Shown here one piece after another: positions 2,695 through 28,367 of a stretch of DNA of 28,367 nt (positions are counted from its first letter, which is position 1; each line of letters opens with the position of its first letter). Under the pieces are notes generated by a model that was not told where the DNA came from, did not search any database, and was given only the letters and a program-made list of their open reading frames with translations. The DNA is from Chrysochromulina parva. Taxonomy: Eukaryota > Haptophyta > Prymnesiales > Chrysochromulinaceae. Where the stretch lies: NCBI GenBank assembly GCA_002887195.1, contig PJAB01000379.1:1-28367 (forward strand), given 5' to 3'. Position numbers and translations under genes: made by a program.

Positions 2695-2872
2695 GGCACC
2701 GCCACCGCGCCACGTCCGGCACCAAGGTCCCTGACTTTTCCCCCGAGGCAAAATCAGTTTGGGGACAATGAAACATGCCGGAATTGGTCAAGTCTTTTCA
2801 AATCAGTTGACGTCTACTCTCCACTTGATCTCCCCAAATCTAATCAGCCCCGTTCCGCGATAAAGGGCCCGA

Positions 2873-9100: not shown

Positions 9101-10987
9101 GTCAAGCAATTCGGGATGAAGGTGCATGTGCTCGAGAACAACGAAGGCCTCCTGCTGCGCGACTACGCGACGAATGCGCCCTTTTACGACCGCTTTGGCA
9201 TCAAGTCGGGCAAGGATCTCTCGGACCCCGACACGCAGGTACTGCCTCTAACTGCCTCTAATTGCCTCTAATTGCCTCTGATTGCCTCTAATTGCCTCTA
9301 ATTGCCTCTGATTGCCTCTGATTGCCTCTGATTGCCTTTAATTGCCTCTAATTGCCTCTAATTGCCTCTGATTGCCTCTGATTGCCTCTAATTGCCTCTA
9401 ATTGCCTCTGATTGCCTCTGATTGCCTCTAAGGATCTCTCGGACCCCGACACGCAGATCTGCTACTGCCTCAAGGCGCCCATCAACAAGCAATTCTTGCG
9501 CAACATGATGGAGGGCAAGCTCGTGCTGGACCGCACGGTGCTCATCGTGGATGAGGTCGACGATCTGATCGTCAATGAGCGTCCGAATGCCCACTACGTG
9601 AAGCCCGATAGGGAATACACTCCGAGCATGATCAAATGCCTCGCGGCGCTCAAAGCGGGCAAAGGGATGCCTGCAGGCGTGGACGAGAGCCTCTGGCATC
9701 GTGCGGTCCAGGACATGGAGACAGCCCACACCAAGCAAGAGGGCGTGCACTACCGCATTATCACCAATGAGAAGAACCAGGCCACGTGCGTCCAGTTGGA
9801 CGCCTCAGGCCAGGTGCCCAAGGTCACACTCACCTCCCCATGGCTCAAGGCCCTGAACTACGTCCGGTGCGGTATCGAACCATCCGCCGAGTCTCACTAT
9901 GCGTGCGTGTGCACTCCGTACGTCTTCAACCGGTACGCGGCCATCTTTGGGTTGACTGGCGCATGCATGTGCTCACCACGGCGCCTCTTCTCCCCACAGG
10001 TACGCTGCCATCTTTGGGTTGACTGGCTCAGTCGGGGGCAAGGCCGAGCTTGCCTACCTGACCAAGACGTACAACGCGGTCAAGTTCAATGTGCCCCGCT
10101 TCCTGGACACATGCACCAGTACGCCGCAGAAAGTGCTCACCAACCATGGGGTGGAGCTGCTCAAGAACGCCAAGGAGCAGACGGCGCGCGTCGTCGAGCT
10201 GTGCGCCCAGTACTTTCGTAAAGTGCCTGTGCTCGTCATCTGCTCCTCGGCCGAGGAGCTCAGCAGGATGCATTCGGCCATCTCAGACGCTCAGGGGGCT
10301 CTGGGAGAAGAGTTTGCGAACGAGGTGCAGCGCTTCTCGATGTTCGACGCGCGGGGCGTCTCGCTCCGCAATGAATGGCAGACGATCATTGACGACGCAA
10401 CCAAGCGGCTCGGCACCACCGATGACAATCGCTGCCGTATCACCGTGACCGATAAGTTCGGCGGCCGAGGGCACGACTTCCAGGTGGTCGACAAGCAGGC
10501 GAATGAGAATGGCGGCATGCTCGTGATTGCCACCTCCGTCCCGGATGAGCGTGAGTGGATCCAATGGAAAGGGCGCACGGCTCGCCAAGACCGCCCGGGC
10601 CAGTTTTACGTCATCCTCGCTCAAGATAGCAAGGTCTTCACCAACAATAAGGAGCTCTTGAACAAAGTGAAGAAGGCGAAGCATGAGAGCGGCGATCTCA
10701 AAGGGCAACCCGACCACGACGCGCGCATCGAGGTGCTGCTCGACGCGGCCGACGAAGGCATCGGCAGCAAGCTCAAGGAGTATGGGGGCGAGCAGGCCAC
10801 AGGCGAGAAGCTCAACGCCGTGAGTGAGGCGCACTTCAAGCGGGACCCTCGTTCGTTTGATGATCCCTGGCCCAATGGCTCCGAGAGCGACCGCGCTCTA
10901 CGAGGCTTCCTTATGTCGAACCACGACGCACCGCCCGATGTGATTGTGGAGCGGGCAAGGGAGCGGCTCGCCATCGACCTGCGCTGA
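3147..10987 (+). CDS. Giant SecA-like ATPase with N-terminal helical repeats (seven exons, ~2,304 aa)
   Basis: Proposed exons: 3147-3800, 3983-4120, 4284-4622, 4737-5045, 5228-9238, 9457-9932, 10000-10987; all junctions are phase 0 except the last (phase 2). ATG 3147 has a good context (AAGATGG) and is the first in-frame ATG after a stop at 3024. Residues 1 to about 540 are alanine-rich helical repeats (units like EAAIAEAEAAGVDASVLARG). Two related modules start at about 926 and 1348 (NERIVLALASLFV and NERVVMCLATLFV). The C-terminus matches SecA's motor: Walker A ATGEGKS (1755-1761), DEVD box (1849-1852), YAAIFGLTG (1977-1985), motif GGRGHDF (2130-2136) and GRTARQDRPGQF (from 2167). The segment between DEVD and GLTG is short, and the scaffold and zinc C-terminus of bacterial SecA are absent. 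No transit peptide is seen, so a cytosolic role other than Sec export is inferred. The substrate is unknown. Confidence 0.82.
4623..4736 (+). other. Intron 3 of the SecA-like gene, optional by frame
   Basis: GTACGC donor and CGGCAG acceptor bound a 114-nt segment, a multiple of three with no in-frame stop. Retention would add 38 residues that do not resemble the flanking helical repeats. The donor matches two other introns in the same gene, so I treat it as an intron. Confidence 0.6.
5123..5217 (+). repeat. 25-bp minisatellite inside intron 4 of the SecA-like gene
   Basis: One 20-bp partial unit (5123-5142) is followed by three near-identical 25-bp units (5143-5167, 5168-5192, 5193-5217). 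Each carries CCTGACCCGA then CTCCCCTCGCCCATG. The array fills most of the intron at 5046-5227, immediately before the acceptor CTGTCAG. It is pyrimidine-rich on the sense strand. Confidence 0.85.
6449..6545 (+). repeat. 15-bp coding minisatellite encoding (G/A)GATP repeats
   Basis: Six 15-bp units read in frame as GGATP or AGATP, about residues 888-919 of the SecA-like protein, just before the first NERIV module. The G-rich runs (nine or more G) could form quadruplexes and make length variation likely. The repeat acts as a flexible linker. Confidence 0.85.
9212..9456 (+). repeat. 27-bp direct repeat of the exon 5 end flanking a decanucleotide array (intron 5)
   Basis: The last 27 bases of exon 5 (9212-9238) recur exactly at 9430-9456, where the second copy supplies the 3' splice site CAG. 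Between them, 9239-9430 holds about 19 units of the 10-mer ATTGCCTCT(A/G). The intron is 9239-9456 (218 nt, phase 0). The first bases of the array (TACTGCCTC, 9240-9248) also match the start of exon 6 (9463-9471). Confidence 0.9.
9933..10027 (+). repeat. 67-bp tandem duplication that forms intron 6
   Basis: A 28-base segment starting GTACGC at 9933-9960 recurs at 10000-10027 with one mismatch. The distance (67) equals the intron length (9933-9999). The first copy now provides the donor GTACGC. A 39-base spacer ending in TCTTCTCCCCACAG provides a pyrimidine tract and acceptor. Splicing restores the frame across the SecA GLTG motif (VFNR/YAAIFGLTG). Confidence 0.9.
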
Positions 10988-11582
10988 GCATGGCCATGGG
11001 CGAGTGAAAGTGCTGCGAGCGTGCTATGAGAGCGAAACACGGATGCGGAGGCCGATCGCCGCAGGCAGCGAATCAGCGAATCGCTGCGCCTGTGAGAATC
11101 ATTGATTCGTGCCACAGCGTAGGGCAGCTCGTGGGCGCCGTCGTGAGCACTGTCGTGAGCGTCACGGAGCTCGGGAGGGGTGTGGGGATGAGGTGGAGTG
11201 AAGCATGCCCATGCTAGCAGCTGCGGCACACCTCTGTTGTGTTTGCCTTTGGTCCGGTTTCCGCATTCCCGGACCGAGTCCTGTGTATGTGCTAACGTGT
11301 GTGCGCGCGGCTGGAACGCGATGGCCGGGAATGCGACATCATGGTCCGCAAGATCATGTAATCCATATAATGAGAATAGGGTAGCAATTCGATCGGATTG
11401 AAGTTGTTCACGGCTGCCGGACGTACGGACAAGCCGAACAGACTTCAACAGTTTCGATTGTTCTCCTCATCAAGGCAAAGCGCTCCTTTCTCGCGCCTTC
11501 ACTCTCCGCGCACTGTCCTCACTCACACACATCTCGGCTACGCCGTCGAGGTGGCCGTCGGCAGCGACAACACGAGCACATC
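10988..11582. other. Intergenic region, no gene seen
   Basis: This 595-bp stretch lies between the SecA-like stop and the WD40 start. Its reading frames are short, lack domain signals, and differ in composition from the flanking genes. It must hold the terminator of one gene and the promoter of the next. I could not identify either signal. Confidence 0.6.
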
Positions 11583-12863
11583 ATGGAGACGTGCGTCCCG
11601 ACATCTACGGCATCTGTCACGATTCGCAAGGAAACGCGCCTCGACGGCCACCGAGAACGCGTGTTCGATCTGAGCTGGTCGCCCACCGGTCCTTGTCGAC
11701 TTGCTTCCGTCGGGCAAACGTGCGGGATCGTGTGGAGCCTTGGCGTGGATGGCAGCGTGACATCAAGAACACGTCTGCCCGGCTCTGAGCTCATGCGCGT
11801 GTGCTGGCACCCAGATGGAGACAAGGTGCTGACCGGCAGCTCGGAAGGCAAGATCAGCATCTGTGACGCTGCAGACGGCTCCATGCTCTCGGCTCTGCAG
11901 GCTTCCACGGACCACGAGGTGTATGGGCTTGCGATGCTGTCGCGCGACGGCCTCCTCGCAGCCGGAGCCGGTGAACACGTGCAGCTGTGGGACCTGAATC
12001 GCGAGACCAAGTTCGCTCAGGCTGAGCTCGCAATGGACGCGGAGAATGGCGTCATCTTTGGCGGCCCCGATCGCAACCCAGAAAGGAAGGCGTTCCTCTT
12101 CAGCCTCGCCGCGCGTGGGCGTGCTCTCTGCGCGGCGCTCTCGGATGGCACCGTCCGGTTGCTAGACTCTCAGACGCTGCAGCACATTCAGACGCTCGAT
12201 GAGCACGCGCGGCGCGGCAGTGCGGTCTTCAGCGTCGCGATCTCGCCAACGGCCCCACAACTGGCCACGTCAGACGCCAAGGGCCACGTGTTGCTGTGGG
12301 ATCTGAGGCATGTGGGCAAGGGTCCGATGGCGGAGAGGACGCACCCCTCGGCAGTACACTCACTCGCCTTTGTGAGCGGCTTGTGTCCCGCGTCGTCCGC
12401 GGAGATGCTCGTCACTGGAGGCGCTGACCGGCGGCTCCGTGTGCTCGAGACGCGGACAGCTGCACTCGCATGTGAGGGCTCGGCCGCCGTGGCCAGTGCG
12501 CTGCTGTGCATGGCGCCGACGGTGGCCGCCGACGAGGCTGGCGCGCCCACGCCGCGCCTTGCCACCGGCGGCGGGAGTGGCGGTCTGGTGAGCGACGCTG
12601 GCGTGACCCTCTGGCGAGTGACAGGGCCAAAGACGAATGAGAGCGTGGCTGAGCCTAGCTCCTCGCCTGGGGTCGCGGTCTCGTTCTCGTCGCCGGGCGT
12701 CGCGAGCCAGACCCAGACCCAGCACGCTGGCGAGGACGAGTGTGAGGGCGCGGCGGGCGCGGGCAGTGGGCATAGCGAGACAGGGCGAATCGCAGAGAAG
12801 CGAAGGCGCCGCAACGTCGACGAGGCCGATGAGGAGATTGTTTGCGGGGTTTGCTCGAGCTAG
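11583..12863 (+). CDS. WD40-repeat protein, one seven-blade propeller with basic/acidic tail
   Basis: A single exon encodes 426 residues from ATG 11583 (context CATCATGG, A at -3). About seven WD-type blades are visible, with typical strands such as HRERVFDLSWSP, MRVCWHPDGDKVLTGSSEG, HVQLWDLN, DGTVRLLDS, DAKGHVLLWDLRH, LVTGGADRRLRVLET and GVTLWRV. The ~70-residue tail is Ser/Gly-rich and contains a nuclear-localisation-like cluster EKRRRRN, then an acidic patch and a terminal CGVCSS. WD40 propellers are scaffolds for complexes. The order and the basic tail are compatible with a nuclear role, for example in RNA processing, but no specific orthologue can be named. Blade 4 is poorly conserved. 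Confidence 0.88.
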   Translation: METCVPTSTASVTIRKETRLDGHRERVFDLSWSPTGPCRLASVGQTCGIVWSLGVDGSVTSRTRLPGSELMRVCWHPDGDKVLTGSSEGKISICDAADGSMLSALQASTDHEVYGLAMLSRDGLLAAGAGEHVQLWDLNRETKFAQAELAMDAENGVIFGGPDRNPERKAFLFSLAARGRALCAALSDGTVRLLDSQTLQHIQTLDEHARRGSAVFSVAISPTAPQLATSDAKGHVLLWDLRHVGKGPMAERTHPSAVHSLAFVSGLCPASSAEMLVTGGADRRLRVLETRTAALACEGSAAVASALLCMAPTVAADEAGAPTPRLATGGGSGGLVSDAGVTLWRVTGPKTNESVAEPSSSPGVAVSFSSPGVASQTQTQHAGEDECEGAAGAGSGHSETGRIAEKRRRRNVDEADEEIVCGVCSS

Positions 12864-13330
12864 CAGCGGCATAGAGGAGGGCGGGGTGGCAGTTGAGTGG
12901 CCTCTTTCTTCTGGGTAGAGCTGCGGCTCCGCCCTCGCGTTGTAGGGCGCGGGGGGGGGGTCGGGGTTGGAGTCAGAGATAGAACGGTCCATGGCCAAGC
13001 TGTACGCACCGCCGGTACGTGCACCGCGGGGCGGTCCCCGGTCGCACGTTGGGTGTGGCTGGTGCTGCGCTGTGTGCGGTGGATATGTGCGCGTTCCCGG
13101 CGTCCGTGGCGCGTATGTGGACTCTCGACTCGGCAGACGTGAGAGCGCCGTACTGAGCGCTATCCGGGTCCGTCTGATAGTGATTGCGGGGTTTGGATTA
13201 GGCAGACTTCAGACTGAATTCAACTGACCTGAACTATAGTACGGGAGAGTCTATTGCTTCACCCTGCTTCACCCTAAACCACTTCGTAACGCCGTCACGC
13301 GTCTTCACGCGTCAGTCCTGATGCGGAATG
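12864..13330. other. Convergent intergenic region, no gene seen
   Basis: This 467-bp stretch separates the 3' ends of the WD40 gene (plus) and the ankyrin gene (minus). It includes a run of ten G near 12951-12960 and a short CTTCACCCTG doublet near 13256-13274. I see no coding region or RNA gene. Confidence 0.55.
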
Positions 13331-14170
13331 CTACAGCTCTATTTCGCCATCGGGCAGCGCCATGCCCTGCCACAGCTCGTATTGTTGGAAGACTTTGAGG
13401 ACACCAAAAGCGCGCAGGCGCAACGCGAGCTGGCGGGCACTCTCGCCGCGACCATCCAGACCCGACGGGCGTGAGTGCGATGCGCCTGCTGCAACGAGTG
13501 CCATCGCGCCGGCCGCGAGGCCGTTTGTGGCACATCGCTGCAGCGCTGTGTATCCCCAAGTATCCAGAGCGTCGAGATCGGCACCGTGTCGAGCGTCGAT
13601 GAGCCGCTGCATCGACTGCTGCCCGACGCGGCTCATCGCGCACACGTGCAGCGGCGTGGCGCCTCCTGTGCTAATCTCGAAGGCCATCTCCGGAGCGGCT
13701 TCGAGCGCGGCTTCGACCTCGAGCGGCCCCTTTCGAATGGCCTGCGACAGTTCCGTATAGCCTCCGCCGGCGTAGACGGGGCCGGGTAGCGAGTTGTGCT
13801 CTTGGAACTGCTTGCCGATGATGATACCTCCACGAGCGTCGCGCTGCACGCGCCCGCCGTAGATGCCAGGCCCAACCGAGTCCGACTCGGCTTCAAGCCC
13901 TTCAAGACTCATCGAAGACCTGGCGCCGCGCCGGCAACGGCGCAGGCTTGTGACCTCGTCGCTGAACTCTATGGGCCGTTTTGCGATTCCTGGATCATCG
14001 TTAAGCGCTTCAATTGCAGCATGATCGCAAGCAAGATCCGCCTCTGTGAAGACAGCGAGCACTTTGGCGTGCGCGCCGTTGAGCTTCGGTACTAGGTGAT
14101 GCTTGAAGCATTGCGGTGTTGTACGTAACGCAGCAGCAGCGGCGGCAGCAGCCGCAAGAAGAACGCTCAT
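13331..14170 (-). CDS. Small ankyrin-repeat protein with hydrophobic Ala-rich N-terminus
   Basis: A single exon of 279 residues starts at ATG 14170. The N-terminus (MSVLLAAAAAAAAAL) is hydrophobic and could be a signal peptide or part of a plastid or mitochondrial targeting sequence. A stretch at about 95-130 (GPGIYGGRVQRDARGG, GPVYAGGGYTELSQA) is Gly-rich. Ankyrin-type repeats occupy about 130-250, with the best units GGATPLHVCAMSR and DTWGYTALQRCATNGLAAGA and the helix-turn LVAAGAS. The order and short length suggest an organellar or secreted adaptor. No catalytic motif is seen. The start lies about 150 bp downstream, on the minus strand, of a TTGC microsatellite. Confidence 0.8.
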   Translation of the reverse strand: MSVLLAAAAAAAAALRTTPQCFKHHLVPKLNGAHAKVLAVFTEADLACDHAAIEALNDDPGIAKRPIEFSDEVTSLRRCRRGARSSMSLEGLEAESDSVGPGIYGGRVQRDARGGIIIGKQFQEHNSLPGPVYAGGGYTELSQAIRKGPLEVEAALEAAPEMAFEISTGGATPLHVCAMSRVGQQSMQRLIDARHGADLDALDTWGYTALQRCATNGLAAGAMALVAAGASHSRPSGLDGRGESARQLALRLRAFGVLKVFQQYELWQGMALPDGEIEL

Positions 14171-14318
14171 CTGGCCTTCAACATCTTCACGGGCGGGCGG
14201 TGCTCAACACAGCGTATGTGTGAAGTGTAATGCGTCTGTACCGGTGTGATTTCTGACACACAGAACACACAGGGCGCTGTGTTGCTTCTTTAAGCAATGC
14301 AACGCCAACCCCAACCAA

Positions 14319-14340
14319 GCTTGCTTGCTTGCTTGCTTGC
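14319..14340. repeat. (TTGC)n microsatellite
   Basis: About five and a half TTGC units lie between the 3' end of the nitroreductase-like gene and the start of the ankyrin gene (14170, minus). A similar array lies upstream of the EF-hand gene near 22855. Confidence 0.9.
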
Positions 14341-14378
14341 CAACCCCCGAGACCCTAGAGCTCTCAGCGCGGTCACGG

Positions 14379-15227
14379 TCACTCGTGCCTGCTGAGGACC
14401 TCGGCGAGGGACAACCGCTTCTTCGGCGGCAGCGGAGGCACGCCTGCAGCCGCTCCAAACCAGATGGTACCCACCACGTACTCGTTACTCGGCAGCCCGG
14501 CCGCGTCGCCAAAGCGCGGATCGAAGTTAACTTTCCCTGTAGTCCACTTCGTGCCAAGCCCATCAGCATGCAATGACAGGCACAGATTCTGGATGGCGCA
14601 GCAGGTGGCGGCGTAGTCTTCACGTGCCTCGCCAGCAGGCTCGTCGAGGTGCCCGGCACGGCCGTCTGTACTCGTCGTAGACACACAAGTGACCACGAGC
14701 CACCCGGGAATTTCAAGCCATCTCTTCAACTTCTTCTCACCCTCACTGGCACCCTTCTCGAACGTCACTAGCTCGGCGTTGAGCTCGCAGACGCGCTGGA
14801 CAGTCTTCGGGCCCAGTAAGTGGAATCGCCACTGCAGGCCTCGCAGAGAAAGAGCACCGCAGTCTTCTCAGTGGTTGCGGTCGTGTGCGGACGCGCGAGC
14901 GAGTGCTTGCGATGAGCGCATGTACGCAGGGCAGCAGGGAGATCATGATGCACTGAGGTTGGGAGACTGGAGCGGGCGACGCACCGGCTCCGTTCGCTTG
15001 TGGTTGGGAGCATACGTAGCCGCCTCCACTGCTCGTAGCAAGGAAGACTCCCAATCAGCGGGAAGCTCAGGAGCAAAGTCATTGACAGTGCGCCTAGAGA
15101 GGAGGGCATCGTGGACAGCCACCGAGGCGTAGCCCAGCCCTGGGACCGTCGACCACACGAACCCGGACGGCGGCATTGCCACCATCGCCGCGTGGCAAGT
15201 CGCTATGAAGGCAAGCATGTGAAGCAT
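14379..15227 (-). CDS. Nitroreductase-family flavoprotein (two exons, ~231 aa)
   Basis: Exon 1 is 15227-14985 and exon 2 is 14831-14379, joined phase 0 across a 153-nt intron (donor GTGCGT, acceptor CCTGCAG). Splicing creates the continuous motif APNHKRTEP/WRFHLLGP, which matches the FMN-binding region of nitroreductases (N..PW.F type). Upstream is SRRTVNDF, the usual S-R-R-S/T-V..F start of the fold. Downstream come DYAATCCAIQNLCLSLHADGLGTKW, the conserved long helix, and VVGTIWFG near the end. The family uses FMN and NAD(P)H to reduce nitro, quinone or related substrates. The total length is normal. ATG 15227 is the first in-frame ATG, and the leader MLHMLAFIATCHAAMV could be a weak targeting peptide. 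The substrate cannot be told from sequence. Confidence 0.85.
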
Positions 15228-15354
15228 CGACAGCAGACCGAGGGCGTGCTTGGCGGGAGACAAATCCACTCCAGGCCCCCAGCTCCACGACGGCGGGCTT
15301 CCTCACCGGCCACCAACGCAAACCAGGTCGCACGAGGCGAAGTCCATTCACACG

Positions 15355-18051
15355 TCAAGTTTTCGAGTTACCGTAAACGGTCGACTCAAGTCGACTCCAG
15401 GCGCCCGGCCTGCCGGTGCCGTCGGTGACGGTGTACTGTATGACGTAACCGTCAGAGCTCTTCACAGAGCTCAGACCTGTGTGTACCTTCGAAAAACTCA
15501 GGGGTTGGGCGGTTGCCTCGCTTGGAGAACACCGCTCAGGCTCCACGCACGCGCGCGCGAGAGTCAGAGAGAGAGAGGACCGCTCGCGTCTCGTCTCTCG
15601 CCGCCCGTCCCCGTGCCACAAGTCGGCAGGCCTCGCACGCGCGCCGCAGCACGCCGCTCGCCTCTCACTCACCACATGCCGGCCAGCCCCGGGATCATCT
15701 CGCTGTTGACGTACACGAAGGCGGTCATGCCCTCCTTGCCCGTCGTCTTGAAGCGGATCTTGGCGATGGGCTGGATCTTCGTGAAGCCGTGGCCCCACCA
15801 CACGTGGGGCTTGCGCGTCGAGAGGAAGATGTAAAAGGAGGAGCGCTGCAGCACCGGCGCCAACGCCGCCAAGGTCCACTCGCTGAAGACGCGGTCGAAC
15901 ATGTAGATGTGGCTGTAGTCGAGCGCCTGCTTGCTGCACGCGTCGACCGCCTCGAAGCTCACCCCGCGAAGGAGGTCGTCGGCCAGCTGCGCGCGGTCGA
16001 GCTCGCCGTAGAGCCCCTGCAGAGCGCCAATCGAGATCTCGACGCGCTTCGCCACACACTCGATCCCGACCGCGCACCGGCAGCCCAGGTTGAGCTTGGC
16101 GTGCATCACGACCTTGCCGTAGCCCGAGCCCACGTCGATGAACGTCGAGTCCGCCGTCAAGTTCCACACTTCGGGCCAGTCGGCCATCGCGGGCACGTAG
16201 CGCGTCAGCCGGCGCAGCAGCCGTAGGAGCTTCTCAACGGTCGCCACCGTCGCCTCGCCGTACCCTTCGGAGGTGACCGCCGTCTTCGGTCCCTTGTCGC
16301 TCACGCGCATCGCGTTCTCGCCGTGCGCCTCGCCCCACATGGCCCCGTCGTGCACGATGCACCCGTCCCACGTGTCCCGCTGCTTGGCGGCGACGCGCTT
16401 GCCCGAGATCTCATCGTCCGTCCGCAGACCCCAATCGAGGTACGAGAGCCGATCCACCATCGCGTACATCTTTTTGACGTCGGCCGTCTCGTCGTGAGGG
16501 TCCGCCCACTCGAGCACCGGCACGGCGAACATGTACTGCTGCTGCTCGCCCTCCTCGCCCTCGTCGCTCTCGTCGCTCTCGTCCTCCCCGACGGGCTTCA
16601 ACAGCGTGGCGACCGGCTCGCGCGAGCGCACGGCGCTCGTCGACGGCTGGAGCGGCGCGCCGTGCGCCCGGCCAATGGTGCCCACCACCTTCTCGCCGAC
16701 AATCCGCAGCCGCTCCGAGACGCAGTAGAGGCGCGCGTCGGCCGCACCTGATGAGGGAGGCAATCGGAGGCCATCAGGGGGGCGATCCGACGCAGTAGGG
16801 GCGCGTCGGCCGCACCTGATGAGGGAGGCAATCGGAGGCCATCAGGGGGGCGATCCGACGCATCAGCACCGGACTCGATGGAGCCCGTGTCGATTGAGAA
16901 GAGGTACTCGCCGTCCGGCAGCCCGACCCAATCCTTGGGGCCGAAGCGGCACGTGCCCTCCTGACGCGCGCTCGTGAGTGACTTGTAGCGCATGTACCGT
17001 GGGCGCGCCGCGCCAGTCGGCCAATCGAAGCCTGCGAGGCGAGAGGGTGCGCGGAGGGGGCGACGTGTCATGGGAAGAGCGAGCGGCGTCGGCGGGCACG
17101 TGTGGGAAGCGCGAGCGGGCGTCGGCGGGCAGGCGGCGCTGGCGGGCACGCACTGCTGGCGTCCCACAGACCAACCCATGCGGAAGCGTCGCCGGGAGTT
17201 GATTCGGGAAAGATCCACTGAAGAGTGACCGAGTCGTCCTTCACCTCGGAGACGCTCAGCCGAAACATGCACCCCTTGGGCCGCCGCCACGTGTCCTCGC
17301 AGATCGTTCGATGAGCTACCCAGAGCTCCGACTTGTCGTCGGAAGGGAAGCGTACCCACCCGTTGGTACGCTTCCCTTCTGACGACAAGTCGGAGCTCTG
17401 GGGAGCGCAACCGGCGGCGAGGGCGCCGTCCGCGCCCGCGCCGCCCGCGCCGCCCGCGCCGCCCTCGCCGCCCTCGCTGCCCGCGACGCGCACGCTGCTC
17501 CCGGGAACGGGAAGGCAGCCCGCTCGGGGCGAGAAGGCCGCCGCAAGGCCGCCGTCCTCGACTGGCTTGATTTCCACGTCGAAGCTGCCACTCCGGCGCA
17601 CGCCTCGGATTTCCTGGATCGAGGCCTCGCCGACGCGGATCGTGTGCACCTTGGACTCGGAGTGCTGCCGCTTCTGCTTCTTGAGCGCAGGCCCGCTCGG
17701 GATGGTCGGCACCGCCGGCTTGACGCGTATCTCTCTCGCAATCGGCTGGCGACCTTGGATCAGCACCAGACCGCTGCCCTCGAGCTCCGCCTCTGCCATC
17801 GCCGCGATCGTCGTCTTGACGCGACGGTGTGTGGCCAGCACGAGCGACGCGTCGTCGCCCTTGAGCTGCGGAAAATGGCTGCTCGCCGAGCGCCAGCAGT
17901 TGCGGCTCTTCGGGTAGCCGAGCCACTGCACCCACACGGCGTCACTCCTGACGCTGCGGCATTTTTCGACGATGTGCAGCTCCGCTTGGGTCGCGGCGCG
18001 TGAGCCGATGGTCGCCGCGGCAGGCGATTCAGAGGGTGGGATGACGTCCAT
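15355..18051 (-). CDS. Chromodomain / SKICH-like / DOT1-like SAM methyltransferase (four exons, ~758 aa)
   Basis: Proposed exons: 18051-17154, 17031-16870, 16747-15673, 15496-15355. ATG 18051 has G at -3 and +4; there is no ATG in good context further upstream. Residues about 24-70 resemble a chromodomain (ELHIVEKCRSV...VWVQWLGYPKSRNCW), which binds methylated histone tails. After a Gly-rich linker, a SKICH-like region runs VTLQWIFPEST...AWVGLW across intron 1 to FGPKDWVGLPDGEYLF. The C-terminal methyltransferase has motif I FIDVGSGYGKVVMHA (about 555-570), then VGIECVAKR and IYMFDRVFSEWTLAALAPVL, a pattern of DOT1 (H3K79) enzymes. Role: nuclear histone methylation, inferred. The last exon depends on a GTGAGT donor that overlaps a stop; without splicing the protein ends at 15669 (712 aa). 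Introns are 122, 122 and 176 nt. Confidence 0.78.
16747..16869 (-). repeat. 68-bp tandem units with GATTGCCTCC core forming intron 2 of the DOT1-like gene
   Basis: On the minus strand the intron (16869-16748) is one 54-nt and one 68-nt unit. Each 68-nt unit starts with a copy of the first ~28 bases of exon 3 (GTGCGGCCGACGCG) and ends with GATTGCCTCCCTCATCAG. A 32-bp core with 7-bp inverted ends (CCTGATG / CATCAGG) recurs at 16747-16778 and 16815-16846. Skipping both units joins TCC-G to GT-GCG in frame. Confidence 0.85.
17321..17400. repeat. 36-bp inverted repeat (one mismatch, 8-nt loop) inside coding exon 1 of the DOT1-like gene
   Basis: Arms 17321-17356 and 17365-17400 pair at 35 of 36 positions around the loop CACCCGTT. 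The sequence is within the open frame, encoding SSDLSSEGKRTNGW on one side and VRFPSDDKSELW on the other. A hairpin this stable in mRNA or DNA is unusual in a coding region. Confidence 0.9.
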
Positions 18052-18059
18052 GACAGGCA

Positions 18060-18077
18060 ACTTTTTGTGCAAAAAGT
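18060..18077. promoter_or_regulatory. Palindrome ACTTTTTGTGCAAAAAGT in a 169-bp bidirectional promoter
   Basis: Eight-base arms flank a TG centre. It lies nine bases upstream of the DOT1-like ATG (18051) and about 145 bases from the HAD gene ATG (18221). It could be a protein-binding site or a 5' UTR hairpin. Confidence 0.35.
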
Positions 18078-18220
18078 GTGTGTTTGGGTGTCGAATTCTA
18101 AACATAGGCTGTGAAAACAGGTTTCAAGTCGAGACGTGTCGCGAGACGCGCCAGTCAAGCCAGTGGTCATATCTCACGGGAGGAAACGCAAACATCAGGA
18201 AAAAGGGGCTGCCTCGCTCA

Positions 18221-18841: not shown

Positions 18842-19027
18842 TTGTAGCCGCAGCTTTTCGTCTACGTGTGCTGTTGTGGACCATTAGAAATCGAATCGAG
18901 CTCCCCGTTGCGGGTTGGACGCGCCGGCCGCGCCGCGTGGGCGTGCACCGTGCTCGATGTCCATCCGGCGCGTATCGGTTTGGTACTTACGTCCCGGGTC
19001 CGGTCGGGATGCAGTTTCGCTACACAG

Positions 19028-19879: not shown

Positions 19880-20234
19880 GCTTCCGTAATGGCAATCTGC
19901 GGTGTGAATTCCAACGGATGGGTGCTTGGATCTCACAGACGTAATACAATCGAACCTCACAGAACCGTACCGGTACCGGTAGCTTCGTTTCGGTTTTTGA
20001 TGTTGGTTGGCGTGCGCATGGTGCGCGGGTCAGGTGTGTTTGTCTCATGCGTGCGGCTTTGCGCCACGACGGCGGCTCCCCCGGTGTTCTTGAACAGGTG
20101 TGTCTCACGAGTTTCGCTTTCTGCGACCATCCCTTGGATGCCACAGGTCGAAGACGAACGCGAGCACATGTCCTGTACATTCGGATCTCCATGAAACGGA
20201 GATTGAAAACTCAGGAAATCTCGAAGCAAAAATC
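19880..20234. promoter_or_regulatory. 355-bp bidirectional promoter with a 14-bp perfect palindrome
   Basis: The region separates divergent starts at 19879 (minus) and 20235 (plus). TACCGGTACCGGTA at 19968-19981 is a perfect palindrome made of two overlapping ACCGGT sites. It lies 89 bases from the minus-strand ATG. No TATA box is clear. I see no gene here. Confidence 0.4.
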
Positions 20235-22145: not shown

Positions 22146-22950
22146 GAATGAATGCTATCTGCATGCGGCGAGGCCACGAAGTAGCAATGCCTTGTATCTG
22201 TGAGAGTATAGTGCGAGGGGCGTGCAGGGCCGGACCACGGCATGGCGATCAGGCGTGCTGTGCGGCAGACCCGGCAAGACCAAGAGCCCGCCGCCAAAAC
22301 CGGACGCCGCGCAGGTCGCCCGTTCTAAACGGACGACACGAGGAATTATGTAGCACACTCCACCGTCTCCATCTCTCCAACTTGCTGTAATAATGGCATT
22401 CTCTAGCAGCGCGTCAATGGCCGGCGCTTTAACTTGATTCGCGAAGTTTTTGAGCGGACGGGGGGCAATCCCAATCGAAGGATCGAATCGTTCCGCTCGT
22501 GCTGCCCAAGGATTATACCCCCCACTCTGGGAACTAAGTTGATAGGGCTTTGACCTTGATCGGGCAACCTTGATGCCCCCCCCCGCGGGAAGCTCGTCGC
22601 CGCGCCGTCCGCGCCATCCAGTCACTACATGGTACCTGTTCAACCGCCCTCGTTCGCACCTTCGCAGCCCTTGCGCCATTCCCTTGCGCTGCTCGCCTCC
22701 CTCGCTGACCAACCCGGATGGCTAGCCGCCGCCGCCGCTCGCCTCCATCTCTCCATCGATCTGACCATCGATCTCGCGTCTTCATCAATCTTGGATCACC
22801 CCCTTTGCGCACGCAGCTCCAACAAGCAAGCAAGCTAGTTAGTCGAAACAACACTTGCTTGCTTGCTTGCTTGCTTGCTCCAACTTCAGCTCGCCCGGGA
22901 CTGTGCGCTTCATTTTCCGTTACATATCCGGACAAAGAAGTTCGCAAGCA
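22146..22950. other. Intergenic region with TTGC microsatellite, no gene seen
   Basis: This 805-bp stretch precedes the EF-hand gene. It contains runs of C near 22575-22584 and a (TTGC)n array at 22854-22878 facing an inverted AAGC array at 22822-22835, about 75-130 bases before the ATG at 22951. The open frames have no domain features. The EF-hand promoter and 5' UTR probably lie here. Confidence 0.6.
22822..22878. repeat. Inverted AAGC / TTGC microsatellite pair
   Basis: CAAGCAAGCAAGC at 22823-22835 faces TTGC repeats at 22854-22878. The two can fold as a hairpin in the presumed 5' UTR of the EF-hand gene. Confidence 0.75.
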
Positions 22951-25722
22951 ATGGTCGCAATGCGATCGCCGCCTTTAGGGACGGCGCCCACCTTCCGTGC
23001 CGTGCGCACCGACGCGGAGTTGGACGGCATGGCGTCTGCGCTGCCGCCTTTCCGGCCGGCGATGCCCGCGGTGAAGAGCTTCCGTCCTCCTTCCGCCAAA
23101 ACGGACATTGAGCATTTCGAGACCCGTCTCATGCAGATGCAGTCGCCGCGCACTACCACGCTCCTTACTGGGCTGCCGATGCCTGCGTTAACTCGGCGGC
23201 CGACATCGATCGCGGCCGTGGATGTATCCGCCCCGTCGAAGATCATGAGCGCTCACCATCTCGCTAAGAAGAAGCTCTACCCACCTTCCATCGTGGCCGA
23301 AAAGGTCATCATGCAGGGTGACCCTTGCCCGCCGCTGCGCACTGCGTACCTCATGTCCGTGTACGATGGCAACCAGGACGGCAAACTGACGCAGGACGAG
23401 CTGGACGTCCTCCTCCGTGACCTGCAGGGCTCCACACGCGTCCTCAATGAGCTCCGCTATGCATGGAGTGTCGTCGGAACCGCGGCTCTAGCCGCACGAC
23501 CAGCTGCTGCACCAGCCTACACCGGCAGCGGCGCCAGTGGAGCGTCGTCGTCGGCATCAGCCTCGAACAAGACTCCGATACCCACCTCCGCATCGGCGGT
23601 CGATCTTGCGCCCTCGGCGGCCAGCAGAGCATCAATGAACGAGCCCGTCGACGACGACGAGAATGAGGCCGTCCAAGGGGCTGTCAAGAGCGGTCGTTTG
23701 ACCGCGCCGCCGCCGCCGCCCACCGCTCCCGCGTCGATACCGTCAGACGGCAAGGCAAGGTACGACGCGCCTAGGCACGATGTGCAGGCGTCAAGAGATG
23801 AGCCGGGTCGCCAAGCCACCGCCCTCGCCGCCCCTTCCGCTGCGAACACCATCGCCGCCCTCACCCCTCGCTCACACGCTGAGGAAGAACGCCAGTCGGT
23901 GACCTCCACGACCCACTTGCAGCCGCGTCGGCGCGAGGAAGCACCCCAGCCGCCGCCGCGCCGCGCACCGCAGGGTCCATCTCGCGTCTCGCCGGTGCCG
24001 ATGCAGGGCGGTTACACCATGCATGCAGGAACCACGAAGCGAGCGGCGCAAGCGGCGACCTCTCTGCCTGCTGATGAACAGGTGATGGCCTCTGATGGCC
24101 ACCGATTGCCACTGATTGCCAAAGCACGCGGCGCATGCGGCGCATGTAGCGCACTCTCTGCCTTCTGATGAGCAGGTGATAGCCACTGACGGCCACTGAT
24201 GCCGTCTGATGGCCGCTGATGGCCTCTGATGCCGTCTGATGGCCACTGATGGCCACTGATGACCACTGATGGCCTCTTATCCCACTGATAAACGCTGATG
24301 AATTCTGGTTAACGCTGATTGCATCTGATATGGCAGGTTGCCAGCCTGCGAGCCATCGAGATGCGAAAGCGTGTCAAGGAGATGCTGCTGCACAAGGCAC
24401 AGCGCGTCATCGACACGTTCAACGAGTGGGACAAAGACCATTCGCTCACGGTCGACATCGAAGAGTTCCGAGGCGCCATGGGCGCGCTCGGCGTGACCGA
24501 TCCGAATGAGATCCACACCCTGTGGGAAGCACTCGACGCGGACGGTACCGGCGAGATAGCGTATCACGAGCTACTTGCCGCGGTCGACCCACACCGGGCA
24601 GCTCCCGGCAAGGCGTCCCTCGAGGCGCTCGATCCGAACAATAAGCAGCATCGGTGGAAGTACGGTCACCACGAGGCAGAGAGCGCCGGAAGAGACATCG
24701 AACGGAACGGCATCCGCGACGTCGGCTACAACGAGGATGTGCGCGTCAAGTCCGAGGTGGCCGAACGAGTCTTCCAGCAAGGGCTGCGAAACGATGCAGT
24801 CGACCCGAACGCCAAGTTCAAGCCGAAACAGCGGCCAGTCGCCCACTTGCCTGGCCTGGCCGAGCACATGGGGCAGGCTGGCGTGTCCAGCTTCCGGGAC
24901 GGCCTACGCGAGGCGCTCCAATCGATGGCAACGACGCGTGTCATCGACGTCTTCCGTTCATGGGATGTGGACGACTGTGGTACGGTCAGCTACAAAGAGT
25001 TCGCGGCGGCCGTGACGACGATGGGCGTCAAGGCGAGTAGCGAGGAGATGCATGAGATGTTTGCCCAGTTCGACACGGACGGCAACGGCTCTATCGACTA
25101 CAAGGAGCTCGAGAAGGCGCTCAAGCCGACGGGGAGGCACAAGGAGAAGGGAACAAAGGCCTTCGTCCCACCTCCTAGCAACGTACCAGCTGTGGGTCGG
25201 CATGCACCACCAGTCAAGGCGCCTGCGAGCCTGGCGAGTAAGGCGAAGAAGAGCAAGCTTAGCCAACTCGGACTCGGCGGCTCCCAGCTGGACGGCCTCG
25301 CCATGCTGCGCGACGTCGTGTGCCACAAGGCTTCCCGCGTCCTCGAGACGTTCAAGGAGTGGGACACAGACCGGAGTGGCACGATCACGTACAAGGAGTT
25401 CAGCAAAGCGATGGCTGGCATGGGGATCACAGTCGGCGAGAATGTACAAGAACTCTGGAACACGATCGACGCCGACGGCACGGGCGAGATTGCGTACCAC
25501 GAGCTTCTCGCGGCGCTCAACCCGCGCGCCGCAGCCTCCGGCGCAACCGAAGATGCTCTCGACCCGAACAATCAGCGCAAAGCCTTCAAGTACGGCAAGC
25601 AGCAGGCCGACGATGCCGCGAAGCTCATCGAGCGTGATAGCGGCATCCGTGACGAGGACTTTGAGACGGCCGAGAAGAGGCGCAACATGGCGCGCAACCC
25701 GGACTTTTTCCGCCGGACGTAG
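22951..25722 (+). CDS. Seven-EF-hand calcium-binding protein (two exons, ~838 aa)
   Basis: Exon 1 is 22951-24081 (377 aa) and exon 2 is 24337-25722 (461 aa), phase 0. ATG 22951 has G at -3 and +4. One EF-hand lies in exon 1 (loop DGNQDGKLTQDE, 139-150). Exon 2 has three pairs: loops at 409 (DKDHSLTVDIEE), 444 (DADGTGEIAYHE), 587 (DVDDCGTVSYKE), 623 (DTDGNGSIDYKE), 720 (DTDRSGTITYKE) and 755 (DADGTGEIAYHE). All keep acidic residues at loop positions 1 and 12; the loop at 409 has Ser at position 5 and is probably weaker. The region after each of two pairs repeats ALDPNN..KYG...IR, so the pairs arose by internal duplication. Exon 1 is mostly Pro/Ala/Ser-rich disorder. Role: calcium sensor, perhaps cytoskeletal or flagellar (inference). 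Confidence 0.88.
24060..24336 (+). repeat. TGATGGCC/TGATTGCC minisatellite intron with duplicated exon end
   Basis: The intron is 24082-24336 (255 nt). The exon end plus donor (24060-24090, CTCTCTGCC...GATGAACAG/GTGATGGCC) recurs, diverged, at 24154-24184, offset by 94 bp; the second copy has an in-frame stop, so only the first can be the coding end. Degenerate 8-11-bp TGATGGCC(A/T)C units fill 24082-24120 and 24176-24300. Near the acceptor is CTGATTGCATCTGAT (24315-24329), also found almost exactly in the sulfatase array. Confidence 0.82.
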
Positions 25723-26056
25723 CGTTGTCGTGGGCATCTACTCCGAACGGACCCTCAAACCCCTTTTTGTCTGACGTACATGAGCCCCGCATTCGAGTGC
25801 ATCTGGGTGTTCTCTGACTGGGTGGAGGCGGGGGAGGGCGAGAGTGCTGTGTAAGAGGCGTCGTGTCATGTCAGCGAGGTCAGACCGGTCGCGACACGGT
25901 CGTAGGCCGGATCGGATCTAATGCAATAGAGGCGCGTTCGTAAGTTTGCACGAAATCGAATGCACAATGCACCAGACTGGCAGTCAACCATCTACGCTGT
26001 ACAGCTGTACACCTTACCCAAACGCATACCGGACCCGGCGCCGTTTTCCGCCCGCC
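25723..26056. other. Convergent intergenic region, no gene seen
   Basis: This 334-bp stretch separates the EF-hand stop (25722, plus) from the F-box/ankyrin stop (26057, minus). I find no coding, RNA or repeat feature in it. Confidence 0.55.
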
Positions 26057-27061
26057 CTAAGCAGGTACAGGTAGCGGCACGCCTTGCTCGTGCAGCCACT
26101 GCACCGTGTCGAGATGGCCACGCAGAGCAGCGTGGTGGATGGGCTGATCTCCATTGCTGTCCGCCACGACGAGCGACACCCCTTGCTCGTGCAGCCACTG
26201 CACCACGGCGAGATGGCCGCGCCGAGCAGCGCAGTGAATGGGCTGCCGACCATTTTCGGCCGCCACGGTGAGCGAAACACCTTGCTCGTGCAGCCACTGC
26301 ACTGTGGCAAGATGGCCACGCAGGGCAGCGCAGAGAATGGGCTGCTCGCCATTGTTGGCCGCCACAGTGAGCGACACACCTTGCTCGTGCAGCCACTGCA
26401 GTGTGGCGAGATGGCCACGCATTGCTGCGTGGTGGATGGGCTGATCTCGATGAACAGTGCCCTCTACGACGAGCGACACCCCTTGCTTGTGCAGCCACTG
26501 CACCACGGCGAGTTGGTCACGCCGAGCAGCGTGGTGGATGGGCTGCCGACCTTTGTAGCCCGCCCCAGTGAGCGGCACGCCTTGCTCGTGCAGCCACTGC
26601 ACCACGGCGAGATGGCCGTGCAGAGCAGCGCAGTGGATGGGCTGATCGCCAAAGTTGTCTGCCACGAGGAGTGGCGCCCCTTGCTCGTGCAGCCACTGCA
26701 CAACAGACAAGTGGCCTCGGGCTGCGGCGATTGACATGCAGCCTGTCTCGCTCCACGGGCACGGCGGCTCTTGATGCACACGAAGCCACTGCAGCATGGC
26801 AAGGTCGCCTCGCTCAGCGGTCCCCTTGCACCACGCCTCACTCGGTTCGATGTTGCCCATGCCCAGCGCCCACTTGACCCGAGATGCCGAAGCCACGATG
26901 AGGGTGGTCCAGAGAGGTCCGTCCTGCTTCTGGTTAGCCTTGGCACGCTCTGTGCATGCGGGCCACATCCGCGTGCATGTGAGCGCCACCGGCAGCAAGT
27001 CGTGAATCGGCACCCTTGCGACGATGGCACGGACGAGGTCGTCATCAATAAGGTCAAGCAA
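26057..27061 (-). CDS. F-box/ankyrin-repeat protein (5' exon unresolved)
   Basis: The open frame gives at least 334 codons. Its N-terminus (LLDLIDDDLVRAIVARVPIHDLLPVALTCTRMW) resembles an F-box, a Skp1-binding motif of SCF ubiquitin ligases. After a linker there are seven ankyrin units with the near-identical core GHLAVVQWLHEQG and QPIHHAA, most 33 residues apart. The fifth to seventh units are very similar at DNA level. The frame has no ATG before the F-box: it opens after a stop at 27118 and its first ATG is inside the F-box end. CTCGACAG at 27069-27062 could be an acceptor for a short upstream exon. Ankyrin/F-box proteins select substrates for ubiquitination; this role is inferred. It is head-to-head with the sulfatase. 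Confidence 0.78.
   Translation of the reverse strand: MLDLIDDDLVRAIVARVPIHDLLPVALTCTRMWPACTERAKANQKQDGPLWTTLIVASASRVKWALGMGNIEPSEAWCKGTAERGDLAMLQWLRVHQEPPCPWSETGCMSIAAARGHLSVVQWLHEQGAPLLVADNFGDQPIHCAALHGHLAVVQWLHEQGVPLTGAGYKGRQPIHHAARRDQLAVVQWLHKQGVSLVVEGTVHRDQPIHHAAMRGHLATLQWLHEQGVSLTVAANNGEQPILCAALRGHLATVQWLHEQGVSLTVAAENGRQPIHCAARRGHLAVVQWLHEQGVSLVVADSNGDQPIHHAALRGHLDTVQWLHEQGVPLPVPA
26060..26760 (-). repeat. Near-identical ~99-bp ankyrin-coding tandem repeats
   Basis: The phrase GCTCGTGCAGCCACTGCAC (plus-strand view) recurs about every 99 bp from 26085 to 26690, with one unit slightly longer (about 105 bp). The repeats also keep the opposite strand open, which produces a long antisense frame that is not a gene. 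Confidence 0.85.
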
Positions 27062-27358
27062 CTGTCGAGCAAGTCGAGAGCGGGCAGGGGGAAGGGGGTC
27101 GTGAGACGGTCTATATCATTTTGTCCGGCTGACGGACGAGTACCATGCTCCTGCTTAGTGCGGGTCCTGTCTGACCGACGACATTTATACAAGCGTTTCT
27201 TTCCCTATTTACATGCATCAAAAACGTCAGTTTCGTGTCACGTTGCATGCAAAAAGTTGCCAAAGAAAGCGTTTTGTGCCAACCCCTTGTGCGTTGTGCC
27301 CTTCACAGCCAATAATCGACCTTCACATGCACACTTCACAAGCCCCAACACGCCCGAG

Positions 27359-28367
27359 ATGGTCGCGCCACCCAACCTTCTATTCACCATGGCGGATCAG
27401 CTGCGCTGGGATTCGCAATCCTACGCCGATGCTGCATCGCCCGTACGCACACCCGCCCTGGATCGCATCGCTTCAGAAGGAGTGCGCGTGCGCTTTTCAT
27501 GGTCCTCTACGCCCACTTGCACCCCCGCTCGTGCGGCTCTGCTGACCGGCCGGCGTCCTTGGGGCCACGGCATGCTCGGGTATGGTGACGTCGCCGAGCA
27601 CTACCCGCTCGTCTTCCCGCAGTTGCTGCGGGACGCGGGCTACATCACCGCGTCGCTGGGAAAGGATCACTTTGGGTGGAACGCCACGTCCGACTCAGGC
27701 ATTGCGCACGGGTACGACCGCACCGTGCTGTACGATGGGCTGGGCCGTTGGGACCCGTCGGCGAGACCATGGCCATGGAACGGCGAGTACGACGACTACG
27801 ACCGTTGGTTTGCCCAGCAGATGCCTGGACAGGACCCATCCGCCACGCTTGACCCGCTGGACGGTGATGGTTGGAACGGTTGGCATGGCAAGGCCTTTGT
27901 GTACGAGGAGCGACTGCATCCGACCGCATGGCTCGGCGCTCAGGCTGTCGCCTTCCTCAAGGCGCATGACCCGTCTGGCCAGCCTTTCCTGCTCAAGGTG
28001 TCCTTCCACCGCCCTCATTCGCCCTACGACCCGCCGCAACGCCTGCTTGACCAAGTGCCCACGACGGCGCTGCGCCCGATGGTGCGGTGCGCGACCTTCA
28101 GCGGCGCAAGCGTCCACGGCGCGATCTCCAGCGGTGCGAGCAGCTGCTGGAGCACTCGGTTTCGAGGCAATGCGAGCCTCGGCGACCCTCCTGGGTGTGA
28201 AGTCTCCGCGGACGCGTGGTGTGGCGCCATGCCGGAGGAGGAGGCGACGTTGGGCCGGCGCTGAGTCTGATTGCATGCTGATTGCCTCCCTCATCAGGTG
28301 TGGCGCCATGCCGGAGGAGGAGGCGGCGTTGGGCCGGCGCTGAGTCTGATTGCATGCTGATTGCCTC
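27359..28367 (+). CDS. Sulfatase (N-terminal part; 3' end beyond window)
   Basis: ATG 27359 has G at -3 and +4. Exon 1 runs to 28218. The start LLFTMADQLRWD is the metal-binding N-terminal strand of sulfatases. CTPARAALLTGRR at residues 54-66 is the formylglycine signature C-x-P-x-R; Cys54 would be converted to the catalytic formylglycine. GKDHFGW and SFHRPHSPYDPP follow, as in choline-sulfatase-like and related arylsulfatases. The reading frame reaches DAWCGAMPEEEATLGRR and then meets a stop unless the tandem array from 28219 is spliced out (donor GTGTGG after GCG-TG). The enzyme would hydrolyse sulfate esters, but no signal peptide is seen at this start. The rest of the catalytic domain lies right of the window. 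Confidence 0.82.
28218..28367 (+). repeat. 79-bp tandem array of exon start plus CTGATTGC spacer in the sulfatase gene
   Basis: Copy 1 begins at 28218 and copy 2 at 28297, differing at one visible base (GCGACG versus GCGGCG). Each has about 43 bases of coding sequence (GTGTGGCGCCATGCCGGAGG onward) followed by about 36 bases ending in GATTGCCTCCCTCATCAG. The window ends inside copy 2. The 79-nt interval 28219-28297 has GT at its start and CAG at its end. Confidence 0.88.

What the first reader, a model, noticed from the sequence alone, without database searches (positions are those of the whole stretch)
9239..28367. A short sense-oriented repeat family (TGATTGCCTC / TGATGGCCTC) sits in introns of four unrelated genes
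The SecA-like gene (9239-9430), the DOT1-like gene (16748-16869, read on its own minus strand), the EF-hand gene (24082-24336) and the sulfatase (28264-28297 and on) all have introns made of the same 10-mer theme. In every case it reads in the sense direction of the gene, including the minus-strand one. The DOT1-like and sulfatase introns end in the identical 18-mer GATTGCCTCCCTCATCAG, and the EF-hand and sulfatase introns share CTGATTGCAT followed by CTGAT. I saw no copy in exons or between genes. This is what a multiplying intron family (introner-like) would look like, though the units are far shorter than described introners.
Basis: partly seen in the sequence, partly recalled or inferred. 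Interest (0 to 1): 0.88.

Follow-up and report, generated by a model that had tools for sequence, protein, structure and literature searches.

The report
Half-introns that spread through algal genes
In this marine alga (a haptophyte by its nearest named relatives) short DNA pieces carrying only the back half of an intron look to have been copied into many genes, each time with a doubled stretch of the gene itself supplying the front half, so new introns seem to be forming now and differ between close relatives.

Summary
GATTGCCTCCCTCATCAG occurs 815 times in the 45-Mb genome (reversed control 0); where flanking coding signal is strong, 20 of 20 downstream and 12 of 14 upstream flanks read sense. 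D is a 15-44-bp copy of the exon just downstream; the copy inside the intron begins GT or GC and would supply the 5' splice site. Of 45 copies (27 loci), 32 show the duplication. Introns are 57-105 nt, not multiples of three, and removing them restores reading frames where testable. An unrelated element, E2, has the same anatomy (7 of 8 copies) and also sits in the window (9933-9999). Database proteins: a 94% relative reads through both SecA intron positions; DOT1 proteins differing by 1-2% carry E1 or E2 tails at sites empty here. Nearest named relatives are Prymnesiales. So 'introner-like' is right in kind, but only the 3' half is carried, the duplication is far longer than the 3-9 bp described, and no inverted repeat marks the left end. 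DNA template switching or intron RNA: open. No RNA-seq was available.

The parts
9239..9456 (+). SecA-like gene, intron 1: array of about 18 ten-mers (GT...), ending in a 27-bp copy of the upstream exon that supplies the 3' splice site (mirror type: D ends in CAG, E starts with GT)
   Evidence: removing it and 9933-9999 leaves one 1834-aa frame; relative P0013 reads straight through this junction, P0015 reads into the array
9212..9238 (+). exonic copy of the 27-bp direct duplication (other copy 9430-9456)
   Evidence: 27 of 27 identical
9933..9999 (+). SecA-like gene, intron 2: family E2 (D copy 9933-9960, E2 9961-9999), exon resumes with D at 10000
   Evidence: not in the reading of relative P0013
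16748..16869 (-). DOT1-like gene, E1 intron with two units (unit 1 16816-16869, 54 nt; unit 2 16748-16815, 68 nt = D + E)
   Evidence: near-identical protein P0125 has one unit only; homologues P0126-P0131 have none
24082..24336 (+). EF-hand gene intron, E1-type arrays with an internal duplication containing CAG|GT
   Evidence: limits read by eye
28219..28367 (+). sulfatase gene, E1 unit 1 28219-28297 and partial unit 2 28298-28367, cut by the contig end
16997..16998 (-). empty target site CACG|GTACATG; near-identical protein P0125 has here the reading LIASLIR, as the E1 18-mer would give
16263..16264 (-). empty target site AAGG|GTACGGC; occupied by D-E2-D in protein P0133
16558..16559 (-). 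empty target site GAGG|GCGAGG; occupied by an E2-like 3' end in P0133 (MQVLTMAPLVPFPTG|EEGEQQQ)
   Evidence: exact base inferred from the protein
8457..8458 (+). empty site AAGG|GTACGTG; possibly occupied by an E1-like intron in relative P0013 (starts MTILIR|YVTN)
   Evidence: weak, because the exon here (MTTLLEG|YVTN) resembles that reading

Best explanation
These are recently gained spliceosomal introns made by at least two families (E1, which contains the ten-mers, and E2) of short 'half-introns'. A piece carrying a branch-site-like motif, pyrimidine tract and CAG is copied into an exon. At the same time 15-44 bp of the exon downstream of the insertion point are duplicated, so that a GT or GC at the start of the duplicated piece becomes the 5' splice site and the exon resumes exactly where it left off. 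SHOWN: the D-E-D anatomy, copy number, frame restoration where testable, differences between database proteins of close relatives. INFERRED: splicing itself, and the copying step. My preferred copying step (about 0.4) is DNA synthesis with microhomology-driven template switching: out of the exon into an existing intron, copying its 3' end, and back to the exon at a shared G|GT. Selection then keeps only spliceable, sense, frame-neutral results. Repeats of the local version give the tandem units, and slippage gives the long ten-mer arrays.
For: Exon sequence after CAG duplicated upstream in 32 of 45 copies (22 loci; 9 of the 32 are follow-on tandem units), the copy starting GT (23) or GC (9). 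The exon after CAG itself starts GT or GC in all 45, so the two are one fact, not two. Match of 18 or more of 22 in 25 of 45 against 10 of 680 sampled control CAG|G sites. Phase restored in 14 and not in 2 (both tandem units) of the 16 duplicated copies whose flanks both read sense; the other 16 could not be scored. Intron lengths mod 3 are 11/11/7 in 29 hand-picked introns. Pfam matches run through three joined junctions: calreticulin 1.8e-26, cNMP-binding 3.5e-18, EML WD40 4.8e-24 (3 of 8 sent). Left-junction microhomology averages 1.67 nt against 0.50 (15 hand-picked junctions, 0 of 20000 resamplings). DOT1 unit 2 joins exon to intron at a shared TGCGTC. Relatives: P0013, P0125, P0133; P0125 differs from the window at 0 of 40 and 1 of 246 residues in the compared segments.
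Against: No RNA-seq: splicing is inferred. Exact joining at CAG|G could be pure selection. 13 of 45 copies show no clear duplication (old, or another mode). Microhomology is zero in 7 of 15 junctions. Of 8 stretches fetched because their 18-mer is not followed by G, five are internal array units but three (L058, L059, L060) join exon-like sequence at A, A and T. No empty copy was found inside this genome for the 8 loci tried. P0013 could be a spliced transcript rather than an empty genomic site; the relatives were seen as proteins only.
Confidence: 0.75

Rival explanations
1. RNA-mediated: the 3' end of an excised intron is reverse-transcribed at a staggered nick in the exon, as in SINE/LINE target-primed reverse transcription. 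The precise end is the intron's own 3' end, the left end is truncated, and D is the target-site duplication.
For: Precise right end at CAG in two unrelated families, variable left end with microhomology, D variable 15-44 bp; reverse-transcriptase domains in the genome, 4 of 5 hits in stop-free frames.
Against: No poly-A or shared 3' signal beyond CAG seen; no link between any of those five reverse transcriptases and E1 or E2 was tested; the mirror-type SecA array and duplications that contain CAG|GT do not fit; DOT1 unit 2 is explained by a local switch.
Confidence: 0.3
2. Non-autonomous DNA transposon (MITE-like introner) with an unusually long target duplication.
For: Many copies, flanking direct repeats, a 7-bp inverted repeat CTGATGA/TCATCAG in one common E1 end (fold z -1.97, 10 of 200 shuffles as good).
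Against: Left ends are not at that inverted repeat; the E2 copy folded shows none at its ends; D length is not fixed; no transposase sought.
Confidence: 0.12
3. Ordinary minisatellite growth inside old introns, with no new introns.
For: The SecA array is an 18-unit tandem repeat; one versus two units in DOT1 relatives.
Against: Exon duplications at the splice sites, relatives without the inserts, same ends in unrelated genes.
Confidence: 0.06
4. Plain tandem duplication of AG|GT exon pieces (Rogers/Hellsten model).
For: Fits a few loci in which D contains CAG|GT, e.g. L004, L022 near 7547, EF-hand.
Against: The 29 introns and the rows have mostly foreign E sequence between the D copies and draw the 3' splice site from E.
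Confidence: 0.05

Closest known systems
Introners (Gozashti et al. 2022, PMC9860276; read: Results and Discussion, first of three parts of Methods, TSD section)
   Same: Similar introns in unrelated genes, mostly no change to the mRNA, splice sites shared between element and target duplication; a Chrysochromulina family is described there (carries its 5' splice site, 4-bp TSD, no TIRs).
   Different: Their search required similarity near both splice boundaries and dropped low-complexity families. Here the first 15-44 nt are target copy and E1 is repetitive, so such a search would probably miss it. Flanking repeats of some previously characterised introners are given there as 3-9 bp; here 15-44.
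Tandem genomic duplication of AGGT (PMC4974935 and PMC3443670, passages read)
   Same: Exon duplication supplies splice sites; protein unchanged.
   Different: Foreign repeated E sequence sits between the copies and supplies the branch-site-like motif and 3' splice site.
Intron gain in double-strand-break repair (PMC3443670, passages read)
   Same: Direct repeats from gap filling flank filler DNA.
   Different: Filler belongs to multi-copy families and carries a ready 3' splice site; repeats are longer than the 'short' ones described.
Amoebophrya introner elements (PMC7789003, passages read)
   Same: Repeated introns with direct repeats at the borders.
   Different: Those have 8-20-nt inverted repeats and 3-5-nt direct repeats, many with non-canonical splice sites.
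Direct repeats near intron borders (PMC11782384, abstract read)
   Same: 4-30-bp direct repeats at or near borders across life.
   Different: The abstract does not tie them to multi-copy half-introns or to presence/absence alleles.

Membership tests
Introner | similar sequence in introns of many unrelated genes | tested here: met
   815 copies of the 18-mer; unrelated genes
Introner | similarity reaches near both splice boundaries (criterion of PMC9860276) | tested here: not met
   only the 3' boundary; the 5' part is a copy of the local exon
Introner | inserts into exons, removal restores the coding sequence | tested here: met
   (where testable)
Introner | short (3-9 bp) target duplication | tested here: not met
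   15-44 bp (28 introns after dropping one tandem copy)
DNA-transposon introner / MITE | terminal inverted repeats at both ends | tested here: not met
   left ends vary in the 29 introns; the 7-bp inverted repeat lies inside some E1 only; one E2 copy folded shows none at its ends
DNA-transposon introner / MITE | mobilising transposase in the genome | not tested
   not searched
SINE/LINE-type retroposition | precise 3' end, variable 5' end, variable target duplication | tested here: met
   (sample chosen by the 3' end, so precision there is partly built in)
SINE/LINE-type retroposition | 3' tail or signal shared with a reverse transcriptase element | tested here: inconclusive
   no tail seen; RVT_1 frames exist but were not compared
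Tandem genomic duplication (AGGT) | both splice sites come from the duplicated exon | tested here: not met
   met in a few loci only
Spliceosomal intron | removed from mRNA | not testable with these tools
   no RNA reads; indirect support

The most novel reading that the evidence does not exclude
Spliceosomal introns in this alga spread like SINEs: the 3' end of an excised intron RNA is copied into exons, and the target duplication becomes the new intron's 5' half. It is a general, ongoing intron-making pathway that works with any intron tail, is polymorphic within the species, and is invisible to searches that require end-to-end intron similarity.
Probability: 0.3. Interest if true: 0.92.

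Novelty: new variant of a known kind. Interest (0 to 1): 0.78.

Why it matters
How introns arise is a long-standing question, and catching gains as segregating alleles is rare. Here two unrelated element families share one architecture, donor tails are abundant, and near-identical relatives seem to differ in which sites are occupied, so mechanism (RNA or DNA template), rate and cost of intron gain could be measured directly. It also suggests that introner surveys demanding similarity at both splice sites and discarding repetitive families may undercount.

Tried and rejected
Rejected: chance; antisense or both-strand spread; insertion without splicing (lengths are not multiples of three); terminal inverted repeats as element ends. 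The 18-mer was not found in viral contigs (0; records near this genome may be left out there). The eight stretches fetched because their 18-mer is not followed by G (chosen by comparing the first 100 places) all contain such a copy: L053-L057 are internal units followed by more E-type sequence, L058 and L059 join exon-like sequence at A, L060 at T (its D copy upstream begins GT). These three are exceptions that I do not explain.

Led nowhere: 18S identification (RF01960, not answered). The EF-hand search: best hit P0001 (98%) starts at an internal Met after the intron and says nothing about it. Intron-less paralogues: 14 joined loci were prepared; two were dropped because their upstream flank holds arrays, four more were left out by a pasting slip, and the eight sent had one stray base (1121 nt); all 17 matches lie in the queried loci themselves. 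A microhomology test on the right junction cannot separate splice consensus from mechanism, so none was made. A first duplication scan extended too greedily and showed 2 of 76 pairs with AG|GT; one search replaced it.

Selection notes: the 45 copies come from the first 8 listed 18-mers, 24 places of the 29-mer subfamily, and any copies falling in those loci, the window and the chosen stretches. They lie in 27 loci, and L045, L034, L039 give 13 of them. All 45 are followed by G, against 689 of 815 genome-wide, so the sample leans to the 29-mer subfamily. In one search the 13 copies without a duplication got an arbitrary upstream end; the 8 of them with two sense flanks came out of phase, which is uninformative. 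One search required G at the start of D. The 29 introns were chosen by hand from 183 automatic hits and the rows; I judged by eye that most of the rest are opposite-strand readings, tandem units or simple repeats. One of the 29 was dropped (tandem E2). The 15 junctions were also chosen by hand.
Full report
WHAT WAS CLAIMED. A ten-base theme (TGATTGCCTC/TGATGGCCTC) in introns of four unrelated genes, always sense, two introns ending in the same 18-mer; perhaps an introner-like family.

THE OBSERVATION. It is in the sequence and far above chance. The assembly holding the window has 45.07 Mb in 2199 contigs; the window is G000:C379:1-28367, and I take the contig to end where the window does (its full length was not printed). 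The 18-mer has 815 exact copies there (control 0), the 29-mer TGATGACCTCTGATTGCCTCCCTCATCAG 74, and the triple ten-mer 149 overlapping matches. Of the 815, 689 are followed by G and 523 by GT.

WHAT THE INTRONS LOOK LIKE. Reading loci around the copies showed that the sequence after ...CATCAG is often repeated upstream, starting at a GT or GC. Systematically: of 45 non-redundant copies in 27 loci, 32 (22 loci) have a match of at least 15 of 22 bases in the 260 bp upstream; 23 of those start GT and 9 GC. The exon after CAG starts GT (34) or GC (11) in all 45, so this is one property of the site, seen twice. At the stricter level of 18 of 22 it is 25 of 45 against 10 of 680 sampled CAG|G sites elsewhere (at 15 of 22 the background is 47 of 680). 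The anatomy is X|D-E|D-Y: D is the exon copy, E the shared piece. E1 is a run of ten-mers, here one to about eight, mostly ending CTGATTGCCTCCCTCATCAG or a variant, in which CTGAT fits a branch-site consensus (recalled), followed by pyrimidines and CAG. In 29 hand-picked introns the length is 57-105 nt with remainders 11/11/7 on division by three, and the exon base before the intron is G in 23 of 29. Without one tandem E2 copy, D is 15-44 (median 23) and D and E lengths are negatively correlated (r -0.50, permutation p 0.002), as if total intron length were under selection; some of that may come from decayed D being counted as E, although 13 perfect-D cases give -0.53.

A SECOND FAMILY. Motif-free scanning of the window plus 200 kb chosen by contig number found the same D-E-D anatomy with an unrelated E: (G)CATGCATGTGCTCACCACGGCGCC...CCCCACAG. 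It has 67 exact 25-mer copies. Of the eight copies listed, seven have a duplication of at least 16 of 20 bases (two are tandem units of one locus); the eighth is weak (15 of 20, not starting with G). One is the second intron of the SecA-like gene (9933-9999). Two unrelated tails with one architecture argue that the way of insertion, not the 10-mer, is what matters.

OTHER MODES. The SecA array (9239-9456) is the mirror case: E starts with GT and the duplicated 27 bases end in the 3' splice site. L004, L022 near 7547 and the EF-hand intron have duplications that contain CAG|GT, so both splice sites come from D.

ARE THEY SPLICED? Not shown by RNA. Indirect evidence: removing the two SecA introns gives one frame of 1834 aa. 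Among the 32 duplicated copies, phase is restored in 14 and not in 2 (both tandem units); 16 could not be scored. The 13 without a duplication have no known 5' end, so their phases (8 out of phase, 5 unscored) say nothing. Pfam models run through the joined junction in calreticulin (L043), cNMP-binding (L044) and EML WD40 (L034) loci; the kinase match (L030) begins at the junction, and the other four of eight peptides sent gave matches beside the junction (one of them weak, E 0.0098).

RECENT GAIN. A 449-aa joined SecA fragment found 112 proteins. P0013 (94% identical over 404 residues) reads straight through both intron positions, then shifts frame shortly after the second; P0015 (99% over 238) ends ...DPDTQVLPLTASNCL, as the window would on reading into the array (my reading). 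P0013 begins MTILIR|YVTN, which fits an E1 3' end at a site empty here (8458), but the exon here (MTTLLEG|YVTN) is itself similar, so this point is weak and P0013 may be genomic or spliced. The DOT1 fragment found 42 proteins. P0125 matches the window in 40 of 40 and 245 of 246 compared residues (plus one M/I difference beside the insert) and begins LRLIASLIR|YIRYKSL: what the E1 18-mer gives when read in this frame, joined at window site 16997, where the window has plain exon. At the DOT1 intron it has one 54-nt unit, the window has two. That it is the same species is inferred from this identity. P0133 (98% over 117 residues) starts with an E2-like tail before EEGEQQQ and ends ...KLLRLEERRHASAHHGVPRPSLPTG|TARRRWRPSRSSYGCCAG, that is D, E2, and D again in the shifted frame (one substitution against the window), at window site 16263, which is empty here. 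Six more distant homologues (P0126-P0131, 55-61%) lack the DOT1 insert.

HOW IT PROBABLY WORKS. DOT1 unit 2 (68 nt) equals 27 nt that match the first 29 nt of the following exon with a small length difference, plus 41 nt copied from the neighbouring intron tail, joined at a shared TGCGTC: a backward template switch that makes D-E-D. For scattered copies, left-junction microhomology averages 1.67 nt against 0.50 for the same exons at other positions (15 hand-picked junctions, 0 of 20000 resamplings as high; seven junctions have none). The same features fit target-primed reverse transcription of intron RNA, for which the genome has reverse-transcriptase domains (5 hits, 4 stop-free) but no demonstrated link. 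Both leave the exact CAG|G(T) junction partly to selection. I prefer DNA template switching because it also covers the mirror and CAG|GT-containing cases, but only at about 0.4.

WHO IT IS. Named relatives of the two genes are Prymnesium (P0082, P0097, P0112) and Haptolina ericina (P0146), the latter in Prymnesiales.

KNOWN OR NEW. Gozashti et al. (PMC9860276; Results and Discussion, first of three parts of Methods and the TSD section read) describe splice sites taken partly from target duplications, 3-9-bp repeats for some previously known families, and a Chrysochromulina family; their pipeline required similarity near both boundaries and removed repetitive families. Searches for introner, haptophyte, intron gain, target site duplication, template switching, microhomology, tandem duplication/AGGT, Chrysochromulina introns and reverse transcriptase listed nothing that I recognised as half-intron elements with long exon duplications; I saw only listings for most results, lists were capped, and the library lacks most subscription papers. 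Hence 'new variant of a known kind'.

Noticed in passing
window 17322-17400 (minus strand): A near-perfect inverted repeat near the start of the DOT1-like reading (cagagctccgacttgtcgtc...gacgacaagtcggagctctg); perhaps a hairpin or an assembly fold-back.
   Followed up: no
window 1-2787 and 26057-27115 (minus): The first is a long stop-free frame with ankyrin repeats. The second holds about six 99-bp tandem DNA units (26073-26701, 77% matches at that period) that look ankyrin-like by eye.
   Followed up: partly
window 5198-11200: A SecA-like DEAD protein of over 1800 aa once the introns are removed, with 112 relatives to a joined fragment, some named Prymnesium; an odd gene for a nuclear genome.
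   Followed up: partly
L045, L039, L050, L022: Single loci carry several D-E-D introns within a few hundred bases (L050 has E1-type at 1297 and 1449 and E2 from 1631), leaving very short exons; possible hot spots.
   Followed up: partly
L049 2127, L051 2310, L007 2441: D-E-D introns that would start with GA rather than GT/GC; possible GA-AG introns.
   Followed up: no
L060 (minus): An E1 copy followed by TTTCACC while its upstream D copy begins GTGCACC: either D decayed on the exon side or the rule of a G after CAG has exceptions.
   Followed up: no
P0148 residue 162: Another DOT1 relative (82% over 68 residues) whose protein ends in an E2-like read-through (HASAHHGASCPLPHR).
   Followed up: no
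window 5122-5217: A 25-bp tandem repeat, 3.8 copies at 98%, at the very start of the SecA-like stop-free frame (5198 on).
   Followed up: no
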